A stretch of DNA of 64,000 nt from Oscillatoriales cyanobacterium (GTDB taxonomy: Bacteria; Cyanobacteriota; Cyanobacteriia; Cyanobacteriales; Laspinemataceae): positions 1-64,000 of the forward strand of contig JAABRM010000017.1 of assembly GCA_011390955.1 (NCBI GenBank), read 5' to 3'. Position numbers and translations under genes: made by a program. Positions 13,240 to 48,845 of this stretch are shown piece after piece (the first letter of the stretch is position 1; the number at the start of each line of letters is the position of its first letter). The notes below the pieces were generated by a model, which saw nothing but the letters and a program-made list of their open reading frames with translations, was not told where the DNA came from and made no database searches.

Positions 13240-13285
13240 TTAGTGATATTATATCAAGTCCGTTTGATCGGTTACAAAAACAATC

Positions 13286-13812
13286 CTCTCTCATTAAGAT
13301 GGATTCCCGCATTCGCGGGAATGACAGGGCTTTTTAGATAATCAGCATCCTCTCTCATTAAGATGGATTCCCGCATATAGCCCTTTGGGCATGGGCTTCG
13401 CAAGGACGCGGGAATGACAGGGCTTTTTAGATAATCAGCATCCTCTCTCATTAAGATGGATTCCCGCATATAGCCCTTTGGGCATGGGCTTCGCAAGGAC
13501 GCGGGAATGACAGGGCTTTTTAGATAATCAGCATCCTCTCTCATTAAGATGGATTCCCGCATATAGCCCTTTGGGCATGGGCTTCGCAAGGACGCGGGAA
13601 TGACAGGGCTTTTTAGATAATCAGCATCCTCTCTCATTAAGATGGATTCCCGCATATAGCCCTTTGGGCATGGGCTTCGCAAGGACGCGGGAATGACAGG
13701 GCTTTTTAGATAATCAGCATCCTCTCTCATTAAGATGGATTCCCGCATATAGCCCTTTGGGCATGGGCTTCGCCTAACGCGGGAATGACAGGGCTTTTTA
13801 GATCATCAGCTA
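13286..13812. repeat. Tandem 93-bp repeat, five units plus one short unit
   Basis: Units begin CCTCTCTCATTAAGATGGA at 13286 (63-bp short unit), then at 13349, 13442, 13535, 13628 and 13721. The short unit carries the plain hairpin ATTCCCGCATTCGCGGGAAT; the longer units have 30 extra bases (ATAGCCCTTTGGGCATGGGC...) in the loop, so the insertion happened once and was then amplified. The period is a multiple of three, which leaves an artificial open frame on the minus strand. Confidence 0.92.
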
Positions 13813-19660: not shown

Positions 19661-19795
19661 TTCAATAGAAAATTGCTGTAGGATGATTCGGAGACGGCAA
19701 TGCGGTGTACTCAAACAATGCGGTGTCCTAAAACAATCCCTTGTCCTAAATATGAAAAGGTAGGGGCGATCGCATATTTTTATCGAGAATTAATC

Positions 19796-20552
19796 GGTGC
19801 GTTACGACCCGATTAAAGGTTAAATTTATTTGGCAAAAATAGTCGCGGTTCTAACACACCCTACGCATATTGTACCCAGATGATGAAGGTGCGTTACGAC
19901 CCGATTAAAGGTTAAATTTATTTGGCAAAAATAGTTGCGGGTCTAACACACCCTACATAAGTTATACTCAGATGATGAAGGTGCGTTACGACCCGATTAA
20001 AGGTTAAATTTATTTGGCAAAAATAGTTGCGGGTCTAACACACCCTACGCATATTGTACCCAGATGATGAAGGTGCGTTACGACCCGATTAAAGGTTAAA
20101 TTTATTTGGCAAAAATAGTCGCGGGTCTAACACACCCTACATAAGTTATGAATTTGATTCGAGCGGAGCGATCGCATATTTTTATTGGGGATTAATCGGT
20201 GCGTTACGACCCGATTAAAGGTTAAATTTATTTGGCAAAAATAGTCGCGGGTCTAACACACCCTACGCATATTGTACCCAGATGATGAAGGTGCGTTACG
20301 ACCCGATTAAAGGTTAAATTTATTTGGCAAAAATAGTCGCGGGTCTAACGCACCCTACGCATATTATTCCCAGATAATAAAGGTGCGTTACGACCCGATT
20401 AAAGGTTAAATTTATTTAGCATAAATAGTCGCGGGTCTAACGCACCCTACATAAGTTATACTCAGATGATGAAGGTGCGTTACGACCCGATTAAAGGTTA
20501 AATTTATGTAGCATAAATAGTCGCGGGTCTAACGCACCCTACGCATATTATA
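19796..20552. repeat. Eight-unit hairpin array, mostly 92-bp period
   Basis: Units begin GTGCGTTACGACCCG at 19797, 19889, 19981, 20073, 20199, 20291, 20383 and 20475. Each unit is a ~67-bp imperfect palindrome, GGTGCGTTACGACCCG ... CGGGTCTAACGCACC, with internal ATTAAAGGTTAAATTTATTTGG, followed by a 25-bp spacer. Between units 4 and 5 the spacing is 126 because a different spacer (GCGATCGCATATTTTTAT) intervenes; that same spacer precedes unit 1 and a truncated unit at 21418. So the array is probably a duplicated four-unit block. Confidence 0.93.
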
Positions 20553-20597
20553 ATACAGGTATTTGTGGTTTATTCAACATAAAATTTCTGGCTGAAG

Positions 20598-20849
20598 ATG
20601 AATCCAATTAAATTACATGATTTAGTGGCAATTACAGAAAATATTAAAACCCAGCGGTTTATGAATCCAGAAGAAATTATCTTACCCAGAGGGCAAGTGG
20701 GCACAGTTGTGGAAGAATATAATAATGGCACTGCTTTTGAAGTGGAATTTTCCGATGTGAATGGTCAAACTTATGCGTTAGTTTCTTTGACTGCCGAACA
20801 AGTTATGTTACTTTATCCAGATTCGTCTAATCTTATTTTGACTTATTAA
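20598..20849 (+). CDS. DUF4926 family protein
   Basis: An 83-residue protein with the short SH3-like β-barrel pattern of DUF4926: IKLHDLVAITENI, then LPRGQVGTVVEEYNNGTAFEVEFSD and a C-terminal strand ending LTAEQVMLLY. Such proteins commonly sit beside toxin genes and often next to a DUF6883-like partner, and may act as antitoxins; the partner here, if any, is missing, since only repeats and broken genes lie nearby. Not recognised beyond the family. Isolated inside a repeat field. Confidence 0.75.
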   Translation: MNPIKLHDLVAITENIKTQRFMNPEEIILPRGQVGTVVEEYNNGTAFEVEFSDVNGQTYALVSLTAEQVMLLYPDSSNLILTY

Positions 20850-21449: not shown

Positions 21450-21698
21450 TATCTGAGTCAGAAATTGACAAGATTGTTATAGAACAAGCTGAGGATGACT
21501 CAGCATGGGACGACCCCATAGAAGTGAGAAAAAAATCCCCAAGTATCTTTGCCGGTGGAACTGGCAGCTAGGGCTGCTTTTTTTGCTAAGGTGCATCGAG
21601 AACCCGCGTTAGAAACTTGGATAACTCGCATTATTCGGGAGCGAATTGAACTGGAAGAAGCCGCTTTTTTAGAGATGAAACGATTGATGAGTCGTTGA
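21450..21698 (+). pseudogene. Broken CopG/antitoxin-like gene
   Basis: Frame 1 reads SESEIDKIVIEQAEDDSAW and on to KKSPSI; near 21547 the frame shifts, and frame 2 continues PVELAARAAFFAKVHREPAL, ETWITRIIRERIELEEAAF and ends at TGA 21698. The ETWITRIIRERIELEE part resembles the C-terminal helix of CopG-like antitoxins. The 5' end has been replaced by a truncated copy of the 92-bp repeat (21418-21450). Together with the neighbouring broken DUF2281 gene it marks decayed toxin-antitoxin loci. Confidence 0.6.
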
Positions 21699-21716
21699 CG
21701 ATAGATGTTTGTTTTC

Positions 21717-23363
21717 TTAAGTTTTATTAGAACGGCGCTTCTCGAATAATCTCTCCCATAGTTTAATAATTCCCCAAATAATTAAGGCAAAAATTAAGGT
21801 TGAACCGAGACTCATTGTGGTGGAAATTGCCGGGGTTAACCACGGGTCTTTGATGCCTAATTCCGATAAATAAGGACTGAGAGGATGTTTAGTTGCATCA
21901 TTTTCTTGGTTCGCGGCAACGGTGGGGACAACGACTATGGGAAATTGAGCAGAAATCGAGGCAACAATTGAACCGGCAGCGAGTCCAATGCCCCAAATCG
22001 CTACACTATTTTGAAAGGTGCGATCGCGCTCTGTTCGCTCTAATTCTACTGAAGTTCTAATGGTTTCAATGAGAATTTCTAAGCTGTTTAAACCGCTTCT
22101 AAAAAATTTACTTTCTTTTTCTAATTGTCGGAGATATTTCTGCTTGACTTGCTGGCTGAATTTTTGCAGGATATAGCAATTATCACCGTTCTGATGTACA
22201 AGTAAAAAATTGTCATTCCCGCGAAGGCGGGAATCCATACAACAACTTATGTACCTCATAAGTAAGAGAAACGCCATATCTGGATTGTTTGATTTGTTTA
22301 AATCTGCGATCGCTCCCCCCAACTCCCCTTGAACAGGGGGGCTTAAGGATAAGCGATCGCTGAGTTCCTGAGAACGCATCTGATAATTTTCTAAGTTAAT
22401 CCAAATCGTATCAGTAAAGTCCTCCAGATAAGCCAAATCGATCGCATAATCAGAGAAGATTTTTCTAGCTTGGGCTAAAATTGAATCCAGTTGTTTAAGG
22501 GTTTTTTTCTGGGGGGGCTGGCGGAGTTGTTTAATGGTATCTTCAATGGTGATATAATCAAATTTTAAACATTGTTTAAGCCAGCGAGTTTGACTGTAAG
22601 CCCAGAGGATTTTTGCCCGGTAGCCAAACAACCGCATCCATTCATAGTTTAACAGTTCTGAGACTTTTTTGGCTAACTCCGCGTTAGGATATAGGATAAT
22701 CATAACGTGGTGACTATTTTGCCCGGTTTCGGGAAAGGTGCGATCGCCCACTTTTGAGGTTTTTTTTGATTGGTTTGGCATCTCGTGATTTTCTTCCAGC
22801 AATATCTCGAAATGGCTTAATTCAAAAATAGTCGCACCGGCAAAAGTGCCTTGACCTTGCAAATCATTTTGCCAGTTACAATCGGGCAATAGACTATGAT
22901 AACATATTTTGGCAATATCTTCGGTATTTTGGGTTTTGGGGTCAGCGATTTGTCCGTAAATTACCCAACTTTTCCCCAGGGTGGGACGAGTTCCTTGGAG
23001 TCGGCGATCGATTTCCGATTTAATATCTTTAATGCACTTAGCCGGTTGGGCATTTTGTTGCTGGTTAATCGAACAATCTAACAATAAACCATAAGTATCT
23101 CCTTGGCGGACTGGATAGTAAAATCCTTGATATGGGTCAGTATTGCCGCCAAATGGATAAATTTGTTGTTCGCCAAAGAGTTCCACATATTCCGCTTCAA
23201 ATTTACAGTCTGCCGCTAAATCACCGTGCATTTCTTTGGTTTCTTTGGGCAGCTTGCTCAGAAACGTCAATCTATTGGCTTCAATTTCTGCGGGATTTTG
23301 TCCTAAGCCGTCCCGTAAGTCGTAGAGAAATAAATCGACCGTGGGATAGATGATATCGCTCAT
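21717..23363 (-). CDS. Membrane protein beside the caspase gene, possible CATRA-type conflict component
   Basis: A 548-residue protein of unknown function. The N-terminal half (TVDLFLYDLRDGLGQNPAEI) is soluble, the middle is helical, and two C-terminal membrane segments (about residues 447-470 and 511-533) bracket a loop of about 40 residues, ending in basic residues. The topology loosely recalls CorA transporters, but no GMN motif is present. It may be the caspase/TPR-associated component of CATRA conflict systems; I recall this from memory and could not check. Two dispersed repeats are translated inside it: LSPPVQGELGG (about 343-353) from a CCCCCC hairpin and MDSRLRGNDNF from a MITE-like element (22172-22278). 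The frame stays open through both. Confidence 0.7.
   Translation of the reverse strand: MSDIIYPTVDLFLYDLRDGLGQNPAEIEANRLTFLSKLPKETKEMHGDLAADCKFEAEYVELFGEQQIYPFGGNTDPYQGFYYPVRQGDTYGLLLDCSINQQQNAQPAKCIKDIKSEIDRRLQGTRPTLGKSWVIYGQIADPKTQNTEDIAKICYHSLLPDCNWQNDLQGQGTFAGATIFELSHFEILLEENHEMPNQSKKTSKVGDRTFPETGQNSHHVMIILYPNAELAKKVSELLNYEWMRLFGYRAKILWAYSQTRWLKQCLKFDYITIEDTIKQLRQPPQKKTLKQLDSILAQARKIFSDYAIDLAYLEDFTDTIWINLENYQMRSQELSDRLSLSPPVQGELGGAIADLNKSNNPDMAFLLLMRYISCCMDSRLRGNDNFLLVHQNGDNCYILQKFSQQVKQKYLRQLEKESKFFRSGLNSLEILIETIRTSVELERTERDRTFQNSVAIWGIGLAAGSIVASISAQFPIVVVPTVAANQENDATKHPLSPYLSELGIKDPWLTPAISTTMSLGSTLIFALIIWGIIKLWERLFEKRRSNKT
22172..22278. repeat. MITE-like element inside a coding sequence
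   Basis: TATAGCAATTATCACCG ... GAGAAACGCCATA with inner TGATGTACA/TGTACCTCA and central CCCGCGAAGGCGGG, about 107 bp. Encodes roughly residues 363-397 of the minus-strand 548-residue protein in frame. A second hairpin (CCCCCCAACTCCCC...GGGGGG, about 22314-22342) lies 36 bp further on, also inside the gene. Confidence 0.85.
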
Positions 23364-23405
23364 TGATAATTGATGATAGAATTTCTTTTATTAGCGAGGG
23401 TTAAA

Positions 23406-23767
23406 ATGGATTCCCGTCTGCACGGGAATGACAGCTTAATATTACTGTACCTCTTATAAGAATTGCTATATATGGATTCGGTGCCTGACGCGGGAATGAC
23501 AACTTTAAACCTATAATTAATTCGCTCCGGTCCCCCCCTTTCCAAGGGGGGTTAGGGGGGATTATTCATTAAAACATCGGCGTTTATATGGATTCCCGTA
23601 TGCACGGGAATGACAGCTTAATATTACTGTACCTCTTATAAGAATTGCTATATATGGATTCGGTGCCTGACGCGGGAATGACAACTTTAAACCTATAATT
23701 AATTCGCTCCGGTCCCCCCCTTTCCAAGGGGGGTTAGGGGGGATTATTCATTAAAACATCGGCGTTT
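23406..23767. repeat. Tandem duplication, 182-bp period
   Basis: 23406-23585 and 23588-23767 are nearly identical (one visible difference: CCCGTCTGCACGGG versus CCCGTATGCACGGG). Each unit holds three hairpins: GGATTCCCGT..CACGGGAATGAC, TGCCTGACGCGGGAATGAC and CCCCCCCTTTCCAAGGGGGG. The right edge of the second copy includes the last ~17 bp of the adjacent minus-strand gene, and the first copy carries a duplicate of that 3' end. Confidence 0.9.
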
Positions 23768-24206
23768 GCGGCATTTCCCAATAGTCTTGGAGAAACTTGA
23801 GTTTTTTGGCCTTTTTGTCTGGTCGATCGCTCGTGGCAACGATGCGCGTTAAATTGGGAATTTCCTGACTTTCTACTTGGGGTTTGCCACCAAAGTAGCC
23901 ACGGGAGATTTCGGTGACTTCTAATTCTTCCAGTAGTCGGTCTTCCGATGGCCAAAGTTGTTGGATTTGCTCCCAACTCAGCGGGGCTAATTTGCTGGTT
24001 GCTTTGTCGTATAATTCTTTCCAAGTCGAGTTGTTATCCAGAAGTTGATTAATTTCTGTGGCAATTTCTGACCAGGGGGTGAGGTCATCTTGTAACAGGT
24101 CGCCGACTTCTTCCAAGGCACAGATTTCATCAGCAGTTAGGTCAAGGGAAAGTTGATTCAGGCTGAGTAAAAGTGCCAGTAAAGTTTTGTGAGCGTTTAA
24201 GTCCAT
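23751..24206 (-). CDS. Small acidic protein divergent from the caspase gene
   Basis: A 151-residue protein; ATG at 24206 (MDLNAHKT) is preferred because the longer frame upstream is translated from dispersed ACACGGCA palindromes. It is helical and acidic (LTADEICALEEVGDLLQDDL, WSEIATEINQLL, then WEQIQQLWPSEDRLLEELEV), with a short C-terminal tail ending QTPMF inside a duplicated repeat. It probably shares an operon with the downstream 548-residue membrane protein and is divergent from the caspase gene (270 bp). It could be a CATRA-system-associated small protein; this is a memory-based guess. No known catalytic motif. Confidence 0.65.
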   Translation of the reverse strand: MDLNAHKTLLALLLSLNQLSLDLTADEICALEEVGDLLQDDLTPWSEIATEINQLLDNNSTWKELYDKATSKLAPLSWEQIQQLWPSEDRLLEELEVTEISRGYFGGKPQVESQEIPNLTRIVATSDRPDKKAKKLKFLQDYWEMPQTPMF

Positions 24207-24269
24207 GATTGGAGAAAAAAGATAGAATAGGGATACATATATATAGAATGGTATCTCAGATGATAGCGA

Positions 24270-24392
24270 AAAATTGCAGGACACGGCAATGCAAAGACAC
24301 GGCATTGAGGACACGGCAATCCTAGGACACGGCAATGCCGTGTCCCTACGGCGCCATCATCCCTGTAGGGACACGGCATTGCCGTGTCCCTC
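24270..24392. repeat. Cluster of GGACACGGCAATGCCGTGTCC palindrome pieces
   Basis: The family core is ACACGGCA(A/T)TGCCGTGT. Full palindromes lie at about 24324-24345 and 24365-24390, and three half-units (ACACGGCAATGCAAAG, ACACGGCATTGAGG, ACACGGCAATCCTAGG) precede them. Located in the 270-bp divergent gap before the caspase gene. Same family at 21331-21371 and inside the caspase gene. Confidence 0.85.
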
Positions 24393-24476
24393 CGATCGAT
24401 AATATAAATAACCAATCAATAACCAATCAATTAGCGAAAGATTACAGGATAAAAAACTTTACCGATACCTGAGACC

Positions 24477-27400
24477 ATGAAACGAGCTTTAGTAGTTGGG
24501 ATTAACTGTTATCGTAGTGAAGAGTTGGCAAATCTCAGAACTCCAGCCAACGATGCCAATGCCATCGCCCAACGACTGCGAGAAATTGGCTTTGATGATA
24601 TCAGAGGGTTGCCTTCGGTAGCCCATCCCCCCCTTTCTAAGGGGGGGCTAGGGGGGGATTGGGAAACCGGGCAGGTCGATCCAGAACCAGAAGAAAATTT
24701 GCTCCATAATGAGTTAGAAGCAGCGATCGACTGGTTATTTGCGATCGAGGATAATGGCAACATCCCGGAAACTGCCTTACTATTTTTTGCCGGACATGGG
24801 TTGCGATATGTGAAAGGTCGCCGCAGCGAGGGATTTTTAGCCACCAGTCGCGCCAACCCCACTGCTGCCAACACTGAGAAATGGGGTGTTTCCTTCGTTA
24901 AATTACGACAAATTTTAGAATGTAGTCCGGTCAAGCAGCAAATTGTGATTCTGGACTGCTGCCATTCCGGGGAAGTATTCAATTATAAGGAAGCGTATCA
25001 AGAAGTCGATCCGGGCAAGTCGGACATTGTAACCCGCTGTTTGATGTCCGCTTGTGGGGCTTCTCAAGCGGCTTTTGAACCGAGGGAAGGAGAACATAGC
25101 TACTTTACCGAGACATTGTTGCAAGGGTTGCAGCAACCAGGACTGGTGAGCACCATTACTTTATCGGCTTATGTGCGAGAAAATTTTAAGCACAAATTAC
25201 CGGCTGCTGTGCGAAATCAGCATCACCCAGATAATCAGCAAGATAGTCACCAAGACCCGGACTGTAGAAACCGAAACGGCGAGATTATTCTGATTGACCC
25301 GGAAGTAGAACCGATAAAATATCAAGAAATTGTCGAAGGGCCATGTCCTTATAAAGGGTTGGCGGCATTTCAAGAGGAGGATGCCCCCTATTTCTTTGGT
25401 CGCAGCAACCTGACGCAAGAGTTAGTTAATCTGATCCATGACAGCAGCTTTTTGGCAGTGTTGGGGATTTCCGGCAGTGGCAAATCTTCGGTAGTCCGGG
25501 CTGGGTTAATTCCCGAATTAAAACAAGGCAGCACTTTTTCCGAGACCAGGGAATGGAAAATTTATCAGCCATTTAAACCGGGAGACGACCCTCTGGCCAA
25601 TTTAGCGCGGGTTTTGGCCGATGAGAATCTGTCAATGGAACAAGTTAACGCCGAACTTGCCCAAGGTGCCCCAGGGTTGCAACGGCTGATTTCTCAGGTA
25701 AATGCTTCTGGGGATGTGTCGGGGGTGGTGTTGGTGGTGGATCAATTCGAGCAAATTTTTACCCAATGTCGAGATAAAGACAAGCAACGGCAGTTTCTCG
25801 ATTGTATCCTAGGCGCGATCGCGACTTTAAACCAAAACCCCGTAGGGACACGGCAATGCCGTGTCCTCCCCTCCGACCGGGCGATCGCACATAATGATTC
25901 ACCACCCGATAATGATTCACCACCCGATAATGACTCGCAACAAAACCATAATTTAGGACACGGCATTGCCGTGTCCCTACGGGTGCCGATCGCACATAAT
26001 GATTCACCACCCGATAATGATTCACCATCCGATAACGACTCGCAACAAAACCATAATTTAGGACACGGCAATGCCGTGTCCCTACGGATGCCGATCGCAC
26101 ATAATGATTCACCACCGGATAATGATTCACCACCGGATAATGATTCACCACCCGATAACGATTCGCAACAAAACCATAATTTAGGACACGGCAATGCCGT
26201 GTCCCTACGGGTGCCGATCGCACATAATGATTCACCACCGGATAATGATTCACCACCCGATAACGATTCGCAACAAAACCATAATTTAGGACACGGCAAT
26301 GCCGTGTCCCTACGGGTGCCGATCGCACATAATGATCCACCACCGGATAATGATTCACCACCGGATAATGATTCACCACCCGATAACGATTCGCAACAAA
26401 ACCATAATTTAGGACACGGCAATGCCTTGTCCCTCCGAGTAGTCATCACCATGCGGGCGGATTTTTTGGGCAAATGTGCCGAATATCCCCAACTGGCGAA
26501 ACGGATTGAAAGCAATAATAAAATTGTGGGGCAAATGGAGGAAACCGAATTACGAGAGGCGATCGGCAAACCCGCCCAAAAAGTCAACTGGAACATCCCC
26601 CCAGACCTGGAAACCCTCATGGTTGCAGACGTTCAGAAGTCCCCCGGCAGTTTGCCCCTATTGCAAGACATCCTCCAACAACTCTGGGAACGACGCAGCC
26701 AACGGTTGACCGTCCAAACCTATCAAGACATGGGCGGCGTCCAAAAAGCCCTACAAAATCGAGCCAATAAACTCTATCAGTCCCTTACCGACGAACAACA
26801 GACCATTGCCAAGAGCATCTTCCTCGAACTCACCCAACTGGTAGAAAGCACCACACCCACCGCCCGACAAGTCCGCAAATCCCAATTAACCGACCTACCC
26901 CCCTCCCCCAAACAGGTGGAAACCGTCCTCGACCAATTAGAAGCAGGGCGGTTAATCGTCACCCGGGAACTGCAAGCGAGAGGGAACAAAGCGGATAAAA
27001 TCACCGTAGTGGATGTCGCCCACGAATCCCTGATGAGTAACTGGGAGCAATTAAAACAGTGGGTCAACGAAAACCCCGAAGTCAAGCGCCAAAGAGACGA
27101 AATCCAAGCCAAAGCCCAAGACTGGGAAGACAAAGGCAAACGCCGCGAGGGATTGCTCAGGGGATTAGATTTAGTCGAGGTCGAGGTATTTGAGCGAAAT
27201 CATGGCGATACCTTTCCCCTGTCTGGATTGGCGCGAGAGTTTGTGCGAGAGAGTCGAGAAGAGAGCGATCGGCTGGAAAAAGAAGAGGAAGAACGACAAC
27301 AGCGCGAACTAAATTTAATTAAAGAAACCCTAGAGCAAGAAAAGAAAGCTACCGAACAAGAAATAAAAGCCCGGAAAGCCGCACAAAGCCGGACAGCCGT

Positions 27401-29942
27401 TGCTCTGGTTTCCACATTAGTCGTCGGTGTGGTAGCAATTTTTGCCACTGTTCAACGGGTAGAAGCCCAAAGACAAGCCACCATTGCCAGCTTAGGAGAA
27501 AAAGCCGCTAGGGTGAAGAATTTGTTAACCAGTGCTGACCCGGTAGATGGCTTAATCCTGGCAATCCAGGCAACGGGAGAGAGTCAAGACAAACTGGGAC
27601 AGGTTCTCACTCCCGTTCAAAGTAGCTTACTCGATAGCCTTCAAACCGCCCGAGAACAAAATCGCTTGCGCCGCCATTCGGGTTCGGTCAGAGCCGTCGC
27701 CATCAGCGCCGATGGTCAGGCGATTGTCACTGGCAGTTCAGACAACACCCTGCGCTTGTGGACCCGTCAGGGGGAACTAATCCGGGAACTGCACGGCCAT
27801 CAGGGTACGGTCTCAGCCGTGGCCATCAGCGCCGATGGGGAGACGATTGTCAGTGGCAGTTTGGACAACACCGTGCGTCTGTGGAACCGCCAGGGGGAAC
27901 AAATTGGGGTACTGCGCGGCCATCAGGATTGGGTCCATGCCGTGGCCATCAGCCTGGATGGGCAGACCATTGTCAGTGGTAGTAAGGATAACATCGTGCG
28001 CTTGTGGAACCGCCAGGGGGAACTAATTCGGGAACTGCGCGGCCATCAGGATGCGGTCTGGGCCGTGACCATCAGCCCGGATGGTGAGACGATTGTCAGT
28101 GGCAGTTTGGACAACACCGTGCGCTTGTGGAACCGCCAGGGGGAACTAATTCGGGAACTGCGCGGCCATCAGGGTGATGTGAATGCCGTATCCATCAGTG
28201 CCGATGGGGAGACGATTGTCAGTGGCAGTGGGGACAAGACCATGCGTTTGTGGAACCGCCAGGAGGAACAGATTGGGGTACTGCGCGGCCATCAGAGTGA
28301 TGTAAATGCCGTATCCATAAGTGCCGATGGGGAGACGATTGTCAGTGGCAGTGGGGACAAGACTATGCGTTTGTGGAACCGTCAGGGGGAACAGATTGGG
28401 GTACTGCGCGGCCATCAGGATTGGGTTAGTACCATCGCTATCAGTCCGGATGGGGAGACCATTATCAGTGGGAGTGAATCTTTCACTTCGGACAACACCC
28501 TGCCCTTGTGGAACCGCCAGGGGGAACAGATTGGGGTACTGCGCGGCCATCAGAGTGCGATCACAGCAGTCGCCATCAGCGTCGATGGACAGACGATTGT
28601 CAGCGGCAGTTCGGACAACACCGTGCGCTTGTGGAACCGCCAGGAGGAAGAGATTGGGGTGCTGCGTGGCCATCAGGGTGTGGTCAATGCTGTGGCCATC
28701 AGCGTCGATGGACAGACGATTGTCAGCGGCAGTTCGGACAACACCGTGCGCTTGTGGAATCGTCAGGAGGAACAGATTGGGGTGCTGCGTGGCCATCAGG
28801 GTGTGGTCAATGCTGTGGCCATCAGCGTCGATGGACAGACGATTGTCAGCGGCAGTTCGGACAACACCGTGCGCTTGTGGAACCGCCAGGGGGAACAAAT
28901 TGGGGTACTGCGCGGCCATCAGTATTCGGTCAATGCCGTGACCGTCAGCCCGGATGGTGAGATGATTGTCAGTGGCAGTGATGACAACACCGTGCGCTTG
29001 TGGAACCGCCAGGGGGAACAAATTGGGGTACTGCGCGGCCATCAGGATTGGGTAAATGCCGTGGCCATCAGCCCGGATGGGGAGAGCATTGTCAGTGGCA
29101 GTAGGGACAACACTGTGCGCTTATGGCCTATGGGTTGGAAAAATTGGCTGCAAATGGGCTGCAATCAGTTACAGTATCATCCGGTACTGGTAGCCCCAGA
29201 AACCGATGTTGCCCGCGAAGCAGGCGAAACCTGTCAAAAATATGTCTGGACTCCCACCGAGTCGGCACAGTTTCTCGTCCGGCAAGGCAAGGCTTTAGCC
29301 CGTGAGGGAGATATCGAGGAGGCAGTTAACAAGTTTAAACAAGCCAAAAGACTTGACCCAACTCTCGACCTAGAACCAGAGGCTGAAGCAACACGGATTG
29401 CTGTTCCTGCTTTAGTTGAAACGGGCAAAGACCTTGCTTACCAAGGTGAATATCACGAAGCGGTTGCCAAATTCCAGCAAGCCCTCACCCTTGACCCAAC
29501 CCTCGACCTAGAACCCGAGGCAGAAGCGAAACGCCTTGCCGTTCCGGTTTTGCTGGCGCGGGGAGAACAAGGGGTTAAAGACAAACAGTATAAAGAAGCG
29601 GTCGAGGCTTATACCGCCGCCCAGAATATCGATGCCACAGTGGAAATTTCTGCCCAAACTTGGAACGAAATCTGTGCGTTTGGCAGTTTGCGCGGTGAGG
29701 CGGCGGCGGTGCTTGAAGCCTGCGAAAAAGCGGTAACTTTGGAACCCGGATATGTAGGAAGTCGCGGAGTTGCCAAAGCCATTGCGGGAGATAAAGACGG
29801 GGCAATTAAAGATTTTCAAGCATTTATTGAAGTGAGTAATAATCAAGGGGCAAACAGACAAGTCCAAGGTTATATTGATGCCCTCCGCGCTGGGGAAAAT
29901 CCCTTCACCGACGCGGAGATTAAACGGTTGTTGGGTGAATAG
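24477..29942 (+). CDS. Caspase-NTPase (nSTAND)-WD40-TPR protein
   Basis: A 1821-residue multidomain protein. Residues 1-270: caspase/orthocaspase domain (peptidase C14) with catalytic His107 in LLFFAGHGLR and Cys162 in VILDCCHSGEV, both intact. About 288-900: STAND/AAA-type NTPase with PYKGLAAF, FFGRS, Walker A GISGSGKSS (K336), Walker B VVLVVDQFEQI and VVITMRADFLGKC. About 975-995: one membrane helix (VALVSTLVVGVVAIFATV). About 1064-1549: twelve 41-residue WD40 repeats. About 1600-1821: TPR-like repeats. Model: WD40/TPR sense a signal, the NTPase oligomerises, the caspase cleaves targets, giving regulated cell death or phage defence. Odd: an ~198-residue in-frame repeat insert (456-653) within the NTPase domain and a CCCCCC hairpin translated at about 51-63 (PPLSKGGLGG) in the caspase domain. 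Confidence 0.93.
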   Translation: MKRALVVGINCYRSEELANLRTPANDANAIAQRLREIGFDDIRGLPSVAHPPLSKGGLGGDWETGQVDPEPEENLLHNELEAAIDWLFAIEDNGNIPETALLFFAGHGLRYVKGRRSEGFLATSRANPTAANTEKWGVSFVKLRQILECSPVKQQIVILDCCHSGEVFNYKEAYQEVDPGKSDIVTRCLMSACGASQAAFEPREGEHSYFTETLLQGLQQPGLVSTITLSAYVRENFKHKLPAAVRNQHHPDNQQDSHQDPDCRNRNGEIILIDPEVEPIKYQEIVEGPCPYKGLAAFQEEDAPYFFGRSNLTQELVNLIHDSSFLAVLGISGSGKSSVVRAGLIPELKQGSTFSETREWKIYQPFKPGDDPLANLARVLADENLSMEQVNAELAQGAPGLQRLISQVNASGDVSGVVLVVDQFEQIFTQCRDKDKQRQFLDCILGAIATLNQNPVGTRQCRVLPSDRAIAHNDSPPDNDSPPDNDSQQNHNLGHGIAVSLRVPIAHNDSPPDNDSPSDNDSQQNHNLGHGNAVSLRMPIAHNDSPPDNDSPPDNDSPPDNDSQQNHNLGHGNAVSLRVPIAHNDSPPDNDSPPDNDSQQNHNLGHGNAVSLRVPIAHNDPPPDNDSPPDNDSPPDNDSQQNHNLGHGNALSLRVVITMRADFLGKCAEYPQLAKRIESNNKIVGQMEETELREAIGKPAQKVNWNIPPDLETLMVADVQKSPGSLPLLQDILQQLWERRSQRLTVQTYQDMGGVQKALQNRANKLYQSLTDEQQTIAKSIFLELTQLVESTTPTARQVRKSQLTDLPPSPKQVETVLDQLEAGRLIVTRELQARGNKADKITVVDVAHESLMSNWEQLKQWVNENPEVKRQRDEIQAKAQDWEDKGKRREGLLRGLDLVEVEVFERNHGDTFPLSGLAREFVRESREESDRLEKEEEERQQRELNLIKETLEQEKKATEQEIKARKAAQSRTAVALVSTLVVGVVAIFATVQRVEAQRQATIASLGEKAARVKNLLTSADPVDGLILAIQATGESQDKLGQVLTPVQSSLLDSLQTAREQNRLRRHSGSVRAVAISADGQAIVTGSSDNTLRLWTRQGELIRELHGHQGTVSAVAISADGETIVSGSLDNTVRLWNRQGEQIGVLRGHQDWVHAVAISLDGQTIVSGSKDNIVRLWNRQGELIRELRGHQDAVWAVTISPDGETIVSGSLDNTVRLWNRQGELIRELRGHQGDVNAVSISADGETIVSGSGDKTMRLWNRQEEQIGVLRGHQSDVNAVSISADGETIVSGSGDKTMRLWNRQGEQIGVLRGHQDWVSTIAISPDGETIISGSESFTSDNTLPLWNRQGEQIGVLRGHQSAITAVAISVDGQTIVSGSSDNTVRLWNRQEEEIGVLRGHQGVVNAVAISVDGQTIVSGSSDNTVRLWNRQEEQIGVLRGHQGVVNAVAISVDGQTIVSGSSDNTVRLWNRQGEQIGVLRGHQYSVNAVTVSPDGEMIVSGSDDNTVRLWNRQGEQIGVLRGHQDWVNAVAISPDGESIVSGSRDNTVRLWPMGWKNWLQMGCNQLQYHPVLVAPETDVAREAGETCQKYVWTPTESAQFLVRQGKALAREGDIEEAVNKFKQAKRLDPTLDLEPEAEATRIAVPALVETGKDLAYQGEYHEAVAKFQQALTLDPTLDLEPEAEAKRLAVPVLLARGEQGVKDKQYKEAVEAYTAAQNIDATVEISAQTWNEICAFGSLRGEAAAVLEACEKAVTLEPGYVGSRGVAKAIAGDKDGAIKDFQAFIEVSNNQGANRQVQGYIDALRAGENPFTDAEIKRLLGE
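25841..26437. repeat. In-frame amplified repeat block inside the NTPase domain
   Basis: Five units of roughly 102-120 bp, each GATTCACCACCCGATAAT (18 bp, 2-3 copies), ACAAAACCATAATTTAGG, the palindrome ACACGGCAATGCCGTGTC and CGATCGCACATAA. The palindrome is the dispersed family of 21331 and 24270. Translated as AHNDSPPDNDSPPDNDSQQ-NHNLGHGNAVSLRVP. Number of 18-bp subunits varies between units (2,2,3,2,3), typical of slippage or unequal exchange. Unit lengths are multiples of three, so the gene frame is kept. Confidence 0.93.
27670..29128. repeat. WD40-coding 123-bp repeats, twelve units
   Basis: Twelve 41-codon units (GHQGxVxAVAIS-xDGxTIVSGS-xDNTVRLWNRQ) in direct order. Units 8-10 (about 28546-28910) are nearly identical in DNA, for example ATCAGCGTCGATGGACAGAC is repeated exactly, which points to very recent duplication or gene conversion. 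Unit 7 carries a 12-base insertion (SESFTSD). Confidence 0.9.
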
Positions 29943-30123
29943 ACTCAGAAACCGGGTTTCTTTTCCGCTAATCACAGTTATCTTTGTTTTCCACAACAGA
30001 AACCCGGTTTCTTTTACTCCAACGAAAAACCCCCAAACCCCAGAAAGCGGGTTTATTTGAAAGCAAATCACAGTTATCTTTGGAATCCACAGAAGAAACC
30101 CGGTTTCTTTTACCTCAAACCAA
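29938..30123. repeat. Repeat block copy A flanking the PIN toxin module
   Basis: GGGTGAATAGACTCAGAAACC, several AGAAACCCGGTTTCT palindromes with linkers AATCACAGTTATCTTTG and CCCAAACCCCAGAAA, ending TTTACCTCAAACCAAT. The same sequence order recurs at 31197-31410. The left edge overlaps the 3' end of the caspase gene. Confidence 0.88.
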
Positions 30124-30186
30124 TTACTGTTACTAATAACATTACCCCAATTTCTCGGATTAAGGGTTTTTGTGTTACGATTAAGA

Positions 30187-30374
30187 TATAGCGTTTCTCA
30201 ATTATATCTACTACTGGGGCAACCACCGCCTACGGAAAAGCCCCTACGGACGGGTTTTTCATTAACCCTATATGGCGTTTCTCGTACTGGTGACGTACAA
30301 AACGTTTTGGATTCCCGCCTGCGCGGGAATGACAATTTTTTATTTTGTACCTCAGAAACGTGAGAATTGCCATA
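30187..30374. repeat. MITE-like element with a second partial end
   Basis: A full element runs from TATGGCGTTTCTCGTAC (30271) to GAGAATTGCCATA (30374) with inner GACGTACA/TTGTACCTC and central ATTCCCGCCTGCGCGGGAAT. Just upstream ATATAGCGTTTCTCAAT (30187) looks like another left end, and TACGGAAAAGCCCCTACGG lies between, so a truncated copy is adjacent. Confidence 0.75.
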
Positions 30375-30445
30375 TCATCCCCAACAAAGGAATGCGATCG
30401 CGCTTCCTCTGATTAAAATACTATGACATCAACCAATAACCGATT

Positions 30446-30706
30446 ATGGAAAATCAAGTCATTGACGCAAGCGGTCTCACTCCCAAACAGATGGCGATCC
30501 TTGAAGAAATTGTGGCGAGTTTCAAGTTGGTTGCCCAACAGAATGATTCATCACAAAATATAGTCAACCAACAAAATAACCAACAAAATACAGAAGCAGA
30601 ACCATTGAAAATCCTCCATCAAGAGTTTGATTGGCTGATTGCAGATTTGGGGGTTAAAGAACCAATAAAAAGAAGCGATATTTATGGCCTCACACAATCA
30701 GAATAA
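30446..30706 (+). CDS. Antitoxin-like small protein for the PIN toxin
   Basis: An 86-residue acidic protein, first gene of a pair with a PIN toxin (23-bp overlap). N-terminus LTPKQMAILEEIVASFKL is helical; the middle is Asn/Gln-rich (QNIVNQQNNQQNTE); the C-terminus FDWLIADLGVKEPIKRSDIY looks like a toxin-binding tail. It contains no familiar DNA-binding fold I can name. Function inferred from gene order. Confidence 0.65.
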   Translation: MENQVIDASGLTPKQMAILEEIVASFKLVAQQNDSSQNIVNQQNNQQNTEAEPLKILHQEFDWLIADLGVKEPIKRSDIYGLTQSE

Positions 30707-31142
30707 ACGGTATTTAGATACGAACATCCTAGTGTATTCAATTGACTTAAGTCAGGCAAATCGACAAAAACATCGAGCAGCTTTAGAAATTCTCAGACCG
30801 AGTAACCTAGAAATTATTTGTCTGTCTTCTCAGGTGATTGCTGAGTTTTTTGCTGTTGTCACCAGTTCTAAATCTGTGGCTAATCCTCTAACTCCTCAAG
30901 AAACCATCCTGCGAATTGAAAGATTGATGCAAATGCCTAATATAGAATTTCTTCCGATGTCAGATGATATCTTTAAGCAATGGTTTGAACTGCTCAAAAG
31001 AAACCCGGTTCATGGAGTAAAAGTATTTGACTTAATGCACCTCGCTATTATGTTATCTAATGGAGTCACCAGTATTTATACATTTAATGAAGATGATTTT
31101 AATTGGTTTCCTGAAATTGAAGTAATTGTCCCCAGTGATTAA
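30684..31142 (+). CDS. PIN-domain toxin, VapC-like
   Basis: A 152-residue PIN-domain ribonuclease: D12 in YLDTNILVYSID, E54 in SSQVIAEFF, D116 in KVFDLMHLAIML, and N135/D137/D138 in YTFNEDDFNWF, all four positions of the PIN acidic cluster. Translation overlaps the upstream antitoxin gene by 23 bp. The pair lies between two ~190-bp direct repeats (29938-30123 and 31197-31410), which suggests a mobile or recombining cassette. Expected to cleave a structured RNA such as tRNA. Confidence 0.88.
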   Translation: MASHNQNKRYLDTNILVYSIDLSQANRQKHRAALEILRPSNLEIICLSSQVIAEFFAVVTSSKSVANPLTPQETILRIERLMQMPNIEFLPMSDDIFKQWFELLKRNPVHGVKVFDLMHLAIMLSNGVTSIYTFNEDDFNWFPEIEVIVPSD

Positions 31143-31196
31143 ATGAGAAAGGCGGAATGCTGGCGATCGTTTTACCGATGCTAAGATTCTTGCTTT

Positions 31197-31410
31197 TGGG
31201 TGAATAGACTCAGAAACCGGATTTATGCATCCGCAAATCACAGTTATCTTTGGAATCCACAACAGAAACCCGGTTTCTTTTACTCCAACGAGAAACCCCC
31301 AAACCCCAGAAACCGGGTTTCTTTGAAAGCAAATCACAGTAGGGGCGATTCGCGAATCGCCCCTACATATTCACAACAGAAACCCGGTTTCTTTTACCTC
31401 AAACCAATCC
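31197..31410. repeat. Repeat block copy B flanking the PIN toxin module
   Basis: Direct copy of 29938-30123, starting TGGGTGAATAGACTCAGAAACC and ending TTTACCTCAAACCAAT. Here the hairpin TAGGGGCGATTCGCGAATCGCCCCTA sits at 31340-31365 in the middle of the unit, absent from copy A, so it was inserted after the duplication (or lost from A). Confidence 0.88.
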
Positions 31411-31422
31411 AACTCAAATAGA

Positions 31423-31737
31423 ATGAATCACCAAGAACTCTTTGACAAAATTAAACAAACTGTGCGTGACATCGAACCGGAAGCGGAAATTATTTTATTC
31501 GGTTCCCGTGCCCGTGGTGATGCGCGATCGGACTCCGATTGGGATTTATTAATTCTGCTGAATGGTGAAGTCACCCAGGAAAGATCCTTACAAGTCCGAT
31601 ATCAGTTATATGAACTTGAATGGGACTGTGGAGAAGTCCTCAGTTCTATGGTACGCAGTCGTGAAGATTGGCAAACTCCACTTTACCAGCACACATCATT
31701 TTATAACTCTATTCAACAAGAAGGAATAATACTTTGA
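31423..31737 (+). CDS. MNT-type nucleotidyltransferase domain protein
   Basis: A 104-residue minimal nucleotidyltransferase with GSX10DXD: G27-S28 in IILFGSRARG, D39 and D41 in DSDWDLLIL, and a later acidic site near W60-D63. MNT proteins pair with HEPN toxins, but no full HEPN gene follows: the next 200 bp hold only a 36-codon frame. It may act on a distant HEPN partner or be a surviving half of a broken module. It lies 13 bp after repeat copy B. Confidence 0.85.
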   Translation: MNHQELFDKIKQTVRDIEPEAEIILFGSRARGDARSDSDWDLLILLNGEVTQERSLQVRYQLYELEWDCGEVLSSMVRSREDWQTPLYQHTSFYNSIQQEGIIL

Positions 31738-31774
31738 CTGACTCGGTTAACCCACAGATTATCTACTGAATTAT

Positions 31775-31885
31775 ATGGAATTTGTCCGTTTTGATGAAAT
31801 TCAGGTACTTCCTTGGAGCCCACAGACTGAGGAATTTATTCAACATCTGATTTCGGTATTAAATAGCGATCGCGATAACAATTAG
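31775..31885 (+). CDS. Tiny open frame after the lone MNT gene
   Basis: ATG at 31775 to TAG at 31885, 36 residues (MEFVRFDEIQVLPWSPQT...). It has no recognised motif. It stands where the HEPN partner is normally encoded and could be a remnant or a non-coding artefact. Low support. Confidence 0.2.
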   Translation: MEFVRFDEIQVLPWSPQTEEFIQHLISVLNSDRDNN

Positions 31886-31995
31886 CAGCAAAAATTAGCA
31901 GCGATCGCACTCATTTGCAAAATTTATTAGACATCTCCAATAATTGCCCGTCACTCCACCCAGATCAAGGTTTTATAGCTGATTATTGGCGATGT

Positions 31996-32277
31996 CTATT
32001 CATCCCAGCTAAACTCACGACCTGGGGAGCGATCGCGAACATCCTCCCAAGGATCTTCATCGTCCCACTCATCCCAATCGATTGTAGATCGCCATTGGCC
32101 GATCGCCTCCCACAAATTCCCGGGCTTCGGCGGCGATTCTCCTCCGGAGACACTCCGCAATTCTCCGGCAAAGAAGCTGCGATCGCGCACCTCTATTGTC
32201 ACCCTTGCACCATCGGCAATATCGATATCTTCTAGCAGTTCTATGGTGCGTCCGCGTTTGATACCTTGAATTAGCAT
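31996..32277 (-). CDS. Antitoxin-like protein without its toxin
   Basis: A 93-residue protein; ATG at 32277 (MLIQGIKRGRTIELLEDIDI) is preferred over a longer frame. N-terminus is an AbrB-like β-strand pattern (GRTIELLEDIDIADGARVTIEV), the C-terminus an acidic toxin-binding tail (DWDEWDDEDPWEDVRDRSPG). In cyanobacteria such tails usually precede a PIN toxin whose start overlaps the stop; here the overlapping start codon (ATGAATAGACATCGC) runs into a TAA after six codons, so the toxin appears lost. Orphan antitoxin. Confidence 0.65.
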   Translation of the reverse strand: MLIQGIKRGRTIELLEDIDIADGARVTIEVRDRSFFAGELRSVSGGESPPKPGNLWEAIGQWRSTIDWDEWDDEDPWEDVRDRSPGREFSWDE

Positions 32278-32605
32278 AAAACCAAACAAATAAATATCTA
32301 GGGTTTGCTGAATAGAACTATAAAGCACTAACCATAAAATCTATTTTATCCCACCTCGCTGTAATTGGCTGCCGTAGCTGCGATCGCCGAGGAAGCTTCG
32401 GGAGCAAGGGAGAATCGATCGGTCAAATATCAATCTGACTGACCACTAGGGATTAGGTGGGCGGCATTGTGTTGCCCATACAAATTGCTATCGATGTTAG
32501 CCTATAAACATATCCGCGAGTCCCACTCAACTAGAATGAATCAACCAGAATTATTCGCCTCTCTCTGGTAAAATCGGAATCATTCCGTCAAATCATCATT
32601 CGGCT
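32278..32605. other. Non-coding gap between divergent genes
   Basis: About 330 bp. It contains GATTAGGTGGGCGGCATTG and an AT-rich stretch near 32570-32600 upstream of the GTG start at 32606, but no repeat or hairpin that I can support. Confidence 0.4.
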
Positions 32606-48437: not shown

Positions 48438-48845
48438 TCCCAATAGGAGTGAGTTCGGGGTAAGACGGTTTTGGGGACAGCGGGCAATCATCGACAATCA
48501 AAAAATTTCGCTCGCTCGATCTTTTGATTATCAATGATGTTTGAAACTTTCCCTATTATTGATTTATTTTTACCGAACTCACTCGGTTGAACCATTTTTG
48601 ATGACTTCAGATGTTATGCCCAATTATCAGTCATCAAAAATGATTAAAAATGATTAATTTTCCCATTGATTTGGGAATATAGCAATTGTCATAGTTATGA
48701 AGTACAAAAAAAACCTGTCATTCCCGCGCAGGCGGGAATCCAGAAAACCTCTGTACTTCCCGAACGACAATAGCAGCTATAATTAATCAAATATATTTTT
48801 TTCGCTATAATTCAGTAAAATAAACCAGGTTAATTGCTGGAAATT
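48438..48845. other. Non-coding gap with a MITE-like element
   Basis: Contains the full 104-bp nested palindrome TATAGCAATTGTCATAG ... GACAATAGCAGCTATA (48678-48781). A TCATCAAAAATGAT... palindromic stretch lies near 48629-48650. No gene. Confidence 0.7.
48678..48781. repeat. Nested-palindrome MITE-like element
   Basis: Same family as 12780 and 17771: outer TATAGCAATTGTC with GACAATAGCAGCTATA, inner GAAGTACA with TGTACTTC and central CCCGCGCAGGCGGG. Confidence 0.88.

What the first reader, a model, noticed from the sequence alone, without database searches (positions are those of the whole stretch)
21717..23363. Neighbouring membrane protein has absorbed two mobile-type repeats in frame
A ~107-bp MITE-like element (22172-22278) and a CCCCCC hairpin (about 22314-22342) lie inside this reading frame and are translated (MDSRLRGNDNF, LSPPVQGELGG). 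Adjacent genes of the same locus carry other repeat families in frame. This may be selection for tolerated protein length variation, or a hot spot for repeat insertion.
Basis: seen in the sequence. Interest (0 to 1): 0.6.

Follow-up and report, generated by a model that had tools for sequence, protein, structure and literature searches.

The report
Mobile repeats absorbed into protein loops
In a filamentous cyanobacterium, a small jumping-type DNA element and a second dispersed DNA hairpin sit in frame inside an intact membrane-protein gene, in what is predicted to be a floppy loop; the neighbouring caspase-type gene carries other repeats, and some of its relatives in other genera carry repeats at the same spot.

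Summary
Confirmed. ORF 21717-23363(-) is a real gene: a membrane protein that in many cyanobacteria lies divergently beside a caspase-nSTAND1-WD40 gene. Its residues 341-350 and about 363-398 are two dispersed repeats. One is a 107-bp TA-flanked MITE (22172-22278; 48 full-length copies inspected; full-length matches in 3 of 59 genomes, all of this genus). The other is a C6 hairpin (22314-22341; 217 pattern matches in this genome, 0 for the reversed control). None of 82 aligned homologues has the segment (linkers 11-66 residues, 79 here). A predicted structure puts it, at low to middling confidence, between two long helices. In-gene copies are rare: 0 of 16 MITE cores in 400 kb lie in gene ORFs, and of 48 full-length copies only this one lies in a credible gene. 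The 'hot spot' idea gets support next door: the neighbour's NTPase loop holds a 227-residue array, and 8 of 58 loops held have 45 residues or more, each with a tandem array or C6-type hairpin, in five genera of one family (a sample partly chosen for inserts). Best reading: survival of rare in-frame insertions in tolerant loops, a known kind of event (Rickettsia palindromic elements, intragenic REPs). Selection for length variation is unproven.

The parts
21717..23363 (-). host gene: protein with N-terminal alpha/beta part (1-225), long helices (228-281, 289-339, 397-473) and a C-terminal helix (509-547); family widespread in filamentous cyanobacteria
22172..22278 (+). MITE copy, ends TATAGCAATT... 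and ...AAACGCCATA, TA flanks; read antisense as residues about 363-398; adds 105 bp under a TA-duplication model
22211..22237 (+). palindromic core of the MITE, TGTC-ATTCCCGC-GAAG-GCGGGAAT-CCA; fits the published description of CGTC-1 REPs (dRS3-like)
   Evidence: sequence; PMC3733652 passages
22314..22341 (+). C6 hairpin repeat, read antisense as residues 341-350 (SPPVQGELGG)
23751..24206 (-). small neighbour (151 aa), same strand, part of the module
   Evidence: match in 28 of 97 host-protein loci
24477..29942 (+). divergent caspase - nSTAND1 - WD40 gene of the same module
24624..24656 (.). C6-type hairpin in frame near the N-terminus of the caspase gene (HPPLSKGGLGG, residues 50-60); met the loose pattern only
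25833..26426 (+). in-frame repeat array with GACACGGCAATGCCGTGTC palindromes between Walker B and the VITMRADF strand of the NTPase (whole loop 227 aa; 25-44 aa in 50 of 58 loops); boundaries approximate
30271..30374 (-). closest relative of the in-gene MITE copy (81.5% over 108 columns, same AAACGCCATA end); its longest spanning frame has 12 aa on each side

Best explanation
A TA-flanked MITE of this genus, and separately a C6 hairpin repeat, inserted into the gene of a conserved caspase/NTPase-associated membrane protein. Both kept the frame and contained no stop. Both fell in the turn between two long helices, so the protein can still fold and the gene was kept. The neighbouring NTPase shows the same filter: its large insertions sit in one loop. 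So this is neutral survivorship of in-frame insertions at structurally tolerant sites, not a dedicated mechanism. Shown: repeat identity, frame, absence in the homologues seen, loop position in predicted models. Inferred: neutrality, order of events, retained function, movement by transposition.
For: 0 of 82 homologues have the segment and their linkers vary in length. The model puts it between helices 289-339 and 397-473, with pLDDT under 50 at 342-349 and 379-392 (also at 203-205 and 468-485 elsewhere). The protein keeps 56 of 60 strongly conserved residues (93%); the other 33 sequences keep 73-100%. MITE cores avoid genes: 0 of 16 in 400 kb where gene ORFs cover 72-73%. Of 48 copies 13 have a 3n insertion length, and 25 of 288 copy x frame x strand combinations are both 3n and open: in-frame survivors should be rare. 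A site at 48678 looks empty in two congeners. Full-length matches occur in 3 of 59 genomes, all of this genus (at most 15 candidates scored per genome), so the insertion probably happened in this lineage. In the NTPase model nearly all of residues 184-381, the array, are under pLDDT 50.
Against: The in-gene MITE is about 18-22% diverged from its nearest full-length matches yet still open, which could mean selection for an open frame. The two module genes are two of only 6 repeat-bearing ORFs among 230 of 200 aa or more in 500 kb, a clustering that plain neutrality does not predict. The inferred pre-insertion protein is two residues shorter here than its homologues, and the element's end encodes D-M-A-F-L where homologues have D-[IL]-A-F-L, so insertion may not have been a clean TA duplication. 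The bare 10-mer GTCATTCCCG, unlike the full core, does occur in a gene ORF once in 27 in the 400 kb.
Confidence: 0.7

Rival explanations
1. Adaptive length variation: the repeats are kept because they change the hinge and the NTPase loop of a self-recognition or cell-death module, giving useful diversity.
For: Both the host gene and its divergent neighbour carry inserts; the NTPase loop holds arrays or hairpins in 8 of 58 unique loops held; nSTAND1 and caspases are described in conflict systems (PMC8195603 passages).
Against: No within-species variation could be measured; I recognised no repeat in the other homologues' linkers (by eye); the inserts are modelled with low confidence.
Confidence: 0.15
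2. DNA-level hot spot: repeats nest in or recombine with repeats already present, so the locus collects them regardless of the protein.
For: Two tandem 182-bp repeat units lie just upstream of the gene (23400-23763); the element's end resembles the host family's codons at the junction; the window has 13 cores in 64 kb against 16 in 400 kb of sampled sequence.
Against: The same loop position is used in other genera with unrelated repeats, which follows protein geometry more than DNA context.
Confidence: 0.1
3. The gene is decaying and the open frame is luck.
For: The two congeners have only weak matches to the host protein (E 1e-5 and 5.6e-6) and none to the NTPase query, so the module is dispensable.
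Against: Intact 548-aa frame, 56 of 60 conserved residues kept, intact divergent neighbour.
Confidence: 0.05

Closest known systems
Rickettsia palindromic elements (RPE) in protein-coding genes
   Same: short palindromic repeats read in frame inside otherwise conserved proteins; the core here fits the CGTC class to which PMC3733652 assigns RPE-4 and RPE-6
   Different: nearly half of the RPEs of R. conorii lie in ORFs (PMC10969869); here 1 of 48 full-length copies lies in a credible gene
Intragenic GTAG/CGTC REPs (PMC3733652)
   Same: in-frame REP dimers or groups encoding 20 to 30 residues; different REPs at about the same site in recB of two Xanthomonas species
   Different: the results list CGTC repeats in five phyla without Cyanobacteria, although the abstract names Cyanobacteria for both super-families; here the CGTC-like core sits inside a TIR-bounded MITE
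QMITE insertions in Coxiella ORFs (PMC5896051)
   Same: MITEs in frame inside annotated ORFs (passages)
   Different: element sequences not compared
Nezha and Anabaena MITEb/MITEe (cyanobacterial MITEs)
   Same: short TIR elements of cyanobacteria; MITEb and MITEe are cited as carrying ORFs
   Different: sequences not compared; known here only through the review

Membership tests
MITE | short, many similar copies, no transposase gene | tested here: met
   48 unique copies of 93-107 bp
MITE | terminal inverted repeats | tested here: met
   TATAGC... and ...GCTATA ends in the aligned copies; the 48 were selected by these ends
MITE | target-site duplication (TA) | tested here: inconclusive
   TATA at both ends; one site (48678) looks empty in two congeners with a single TA, but the flanks align loosely
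MITE | autonomous parent transposon with the same ends | tested here: inconclusive
   by eye no transposase among ORFs beside end-only matches in 11 loci of 4 other genomes; no transposase model was searched
CGTC-1 REP / dRS3-like core | CGTC (or TGTC) end, 8-bp stem starting with AT, 4-bp loop, CCA tail | tested here: met
   TGTC-ATTCCCGC-GAAG-GCGGGAAT-CCA at 22211-22237 against the description in PMC3733652
Rickettsia palindromic element | frequent in-frame insertion in unrelated genes | tested here: not met
   1 of 48 full-length copies in a credible gene; 0 of 16 cores in 400 kb
CorA-type channel (host protein) | alpha/beta domain, long stalk helix, two C-terminal membrane helices | tested here: inconclusive
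   CorA chains head the Foldseek list, best E 1.6e-3, none under 0.001, TM-score at most 0.34 in the rows shown; VIA Z 9.9 over 133 residues among unrelated helical bundles up to 11.6
CorA-type channel (host protein) | GMN motif (recalled) | tested here: not met
   not in the translated sequence, read directly
EACC1-associated caspase (neighbour gene) | NCBIfam NF047832 above its cut-off | tested here: not met
   90.3 bits against 140

The most novel reading that the evidence does not exclude
One surface loop of a caspase-linked STAND NTPase, between Walker B and the next core strand, and the hinge of its partner membrane protein are recurrent landing sites where a family of filamentous cyanobacteria repeatedly recruits unrelated dispersed palindromes and grows them into arrays, so genomic repeats serve as raw material that diversifies a cell-death or immune module.
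Probability: 0.2. Interest if true: 0.65.

Novelty: new member of a known kind. Interest (0 to 1): 0.42.

Why it matters
It is a clear cyanobacterial case of dispersed repeats becoming protein, with the accepting loop identified both by homologues and by a predicted structure. If the repeated use of the NTPase loop is adaptive, it would tie genome repeats to diversification of caspase/STAND modules; 48 of 97 host-protein loci held here carry the divergent caspase gene within 2.5 kb, so the idea can be tested widely.

Tried and rejected
Pseudogene reading: disfavoured by conserved-residue retention. Spurious ORF: rejected on homology. Rfam and tRNA scans of the window found nothing. A first TIR pattern with wrong spacing gave 0 matches. 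No transposase was recognised beside end-only matches. Pfam gave nothing above cut-off for the host protein (best DUF3975, 15.1 against 25) and nothing for the small neighbour; NCBIfam and PADLOC gave nothing for either; for the big neighbour PADLOC gave a caspase model (47.9 bits) and a WD40-region match. 'CorA' does not occur in the main text of PMC7159879, and in PMC8195603 it matched only the word 'coral' and references. Other MITE copies in open frames: L053 (75/53 aa) and L069 (100/112 aa, degenerate end) look like repeat-filled intergenic frames by eye; L063 (38/41) is similar; none was tested by homology. In the window 3 further bare 10-mers lie in ORF 13272-13748(-), itself a 93-bp tandem-repeat region. 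Other repeats in gene ORFs of the 400 kb: C6 hairpin 2 of 7, GACACGGCA palindrome 1 of 2, CCGGGTTTCT palindrome 4 of 96. Other repeat-bearing ORFs in the census: C18:16717 and C40:184391 look low-complexity, C91:67039 has its repeat near the N-terminus (possible wrong start), C18:4206 (1131 aa) has one palindrome in frame; the two Pfam calls meant to identify them failed and were not repeated. A first loop-finding script was too strict and was replaced. Literature: 9 searches; judged by titles and abstract starts, none listed showed recurrent repeat insertion in a STAND NTPase loop.

Full report
What was checked. The window is G000:C91:1-64000 of a 7.12-Mb genome in 113 contigs. No tool named the host organism itself. 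The ORF 21717-23363(-) encodes 548 residues.

The MITE. Copies align over about 102 bp with ends TATAGCRRTT... and ...AACCGCTATA and a palindromic core GTCATTCCCGC...GCGGGAATCC. From the stretches fetched I extracted 48 unique full-length copies of 93-107 bp. The genome total is unknown, because the searches scored only 40 of 458 and 40 of 487 candidates. The in-gene copy (107 bp) is nearest to the copy at 30271-30374 (81.5% over 108 columns) and shares its AAACGCCATA end, so the end that reads MAFL in the protein is element sequence. In a search of 59 genomes, own included, 10 had a match: full-length ones in 3, all of this genus, and core-only or end-only ones in 7; at most 15 candidates were scored per genome, a limit reached in G000-G003, G005, G008, G011, G053 and G055 or nearly so. 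At 48678-48781 two congeners lack the element and have a single TA where the window has TATAGC...GCTATA; the flanks align loosely, so this is suggestive only.

The core. TGTC-ATTCCCGC-GAAG-GCGGGAAT-CCA fits the description of CGTC-1 REPs in PMC3733652 (end CGTC or TGTC, 8-bp stem beginning AT, 4-bp loop, CCA tail; equated there with Neisseria dRS3 and, in R. conorii, RPE-6; passages). The results of that paper list five phyla for CGTC repeats without Cyanobacteria, while its abstract names Cyanobacteria for both super-families (passages), so I claim no new phylum.

The hairpin. The C6 pattern has 217 matches in the own genome at up to 3 mismatches and 0 for the reversed control. A related pattern at up to 2 mismatches occurs in 45 of 59 genomes, own included, with 0 in the reversed controls.

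Homologues. Of 59 genomes, own included, 36 encode a match. In an alignment with 33 homologues none has the segment; three have other long linkers of 55-64 residues, against 70 for the window and 15-33 for the remaining 30. Among 82 hits, some being the same place fetched from two collections, the linker is 11 (a truncated frame) to 66 residues against 79; 2 of 82 exceed 45, and by eye neither shows the repeats. Without the two inserts the window's linker would be close to that of its nearest homologues, though two residues short at the MITE junction (by hand). The host protein keeps 56 of 60 positions that are at least 85% conserved in the other 33 sequences; those keep 45-58 of 58-63.

Structure. 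The model (mean pLDDT 79.3, pTM 0.72) has an alpha/beta part, helices 228-281, 289-339 and 397-473, and a C-terminal helix 509-547. The linker between the second and third long helix is modelled at low to middling confidence (under 50 at 342-349 and 379-392, short helices in between); 203-205 and 468-485 are also under 50. CorA chains head the Foldseek list with marginal scores, and the VIA list mixes CorA/MRS2 with unrelated helical bundles. CorA likeness is a lead only.

How unusual is an in-gene copy? In 400 kb taken without regard to repeats, MITE cores in gene ORFs were 0 of 16 while such ORFs cover 72-73%; simple binomial arithmetic gives about 1e-9, though tandem copies are not independent. 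The bare 10-mer GTCATTCCCG was in a gene ORF in 1 of 27 cases there. In the window the figures are 1 of 13 cores and 4 of 21 10-mers. Of the 48 copies, 2 lie in an open frame with 40 or more residues on both sides, and only the window's is a credible gene; among the congener copies held, 0 of 7 and 0 of 6. In 500 kb, 6 of 230 ORFs of 200 aa or more contain DNA that also matches intergenic pieces at least three times. Two of the six are the host gene and its divergent neighbour; several of the others may be artefacts. The pair was singled out after the fact, so I attach no probability to it.

The module. Of 97 loci held for the host protein, 53 have a caspase match and 28 a match to the 151-aa neighbour; in 48 the caspase lies within 2.5 kb on the opposite strand; some places are counted twice. 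In congener G002 the slot between sequences matching window 21452 and 32553 holds about 6.4 kb of other sequence. In G001 the match to 32565 is followed after 33 bp by a copy of a repeat that also lies left of the window's module; the left flank proper was not seen in the stretch fetched. So the module is missing from that position in both congeners.

The neighbour's loop. In the caspase-nSTAND1-WD40 gene the stretch between Walker B and the VITMRADF strand has 227 residues. Across the loci held I found 58 unique loops by DNA: 50 of 25-44 residues and 8 of 45 or more. The sample is not random: several stretches were fetched because a split match pointed to an insert, so 8 of 58 is no rate. The eight are the window (array with GACACGGCAATGCCGTGTC palindromes), three paralogues in G005 (arrays of another sequence; 233, 189, 152), two near-identical paralogues in G004 (64; a C6-type hairpin plus a second palindrome whose dispersal I did not test), G010 (51; a perfect C6 hairpin) and G003 (47; a decayed C6 sharing the G010 spacer). 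The lenient C6 pattern (up to 5 errors) hits exactly these 4 of 58 loops and 1 of 11,600 shuffled loops. All eight come from one family and five genera. G003 and G010 may descend from one insertion, the G004 pair from one and the G005 trio from one, so I count about four independent events. The finder would miss loops over 330 residues or with unusual motifs. In an alignment of 18 caspase-gene sequences (one aberrant row dropped; several fragments, the rest cut at about 1000 residues) this was the only NTPase position with insertions over 20 residues; insertions of 8-17 occur at several other sites, and larger ones of 16-87 at the start of the WD40 part, where the cut ends make the alignment unreliable. 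The NTPase model (mean pLDDT 65.7, pTM 0.58) has a mostly confident core, while nearly all of residues 184-381 are under pLDDT 50. A second C6-type hairpin reads HPPLSKGGLGG near the N-terminus of the same gene; that region has 54 residues against 38-47 in the other rows.

Reading. The simplest account is a filter: repeats land widely, most in-gene landings are lost, and survivors are in frame, free of stops and in loops. By the copies at hand 25 of 288 landings would be both 3n and open. This resembles Rickettsia palindromic elements (review PMC10969869, one section and passages read; the original papers were not read, one look-up failed) and intragenic REPs (PMC3733652, one section and passages read), which report different REPs at about the same site in recB of two Xanthomonas species. 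Less ordinary is the repeated use of one NTPase loop by unrelated repeats. Whether that is tolerance or use cannot be decided from these data.

Noticed in passing
24477-29942 (+), array about 25833-26426; L344, L343, L342 (G005), L340 (G004), L158 (G010), L341 (G003): NTPase loop of the caspase-nSTAND1 gene holds long arrays or hairpin repeats in five genera at one position (8 of 58 unique loops held are 45 residues or more).
   Followed up: partly
about 21453-32552: The module is missing from this position in both congeners; G002 has about 6.4 kb of other sequence there.
   Followed up: partly
L371 4508-10664: By eye, the G002 slot encodes a two-component pair and a CusB/CusA-like efflux set; not tested with profiles.
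   Followed up: no
23400-23763: Two tandem 182-bp units, 98% identical, just upstream of the host gene; each holds an ATTCCCG-type palindrome and a C6 hairpin.
   Followed up: no
19671-20648: A repeat array with 92-bp spacing (8 register copies).
   Followed up: no
L214, linker of its host-protein homologue: Internal duplication in the linker (IATDRESNPDALQ / IATDRESSPDALL), another way the same hinge has grown.
   Followed up: no
L138 4206-7601: A 1131-aa ORF elsewhere in the genome reads a GGGACACGGCAATGCCGTGTCCC palindrome in frame.
   Followed up: no
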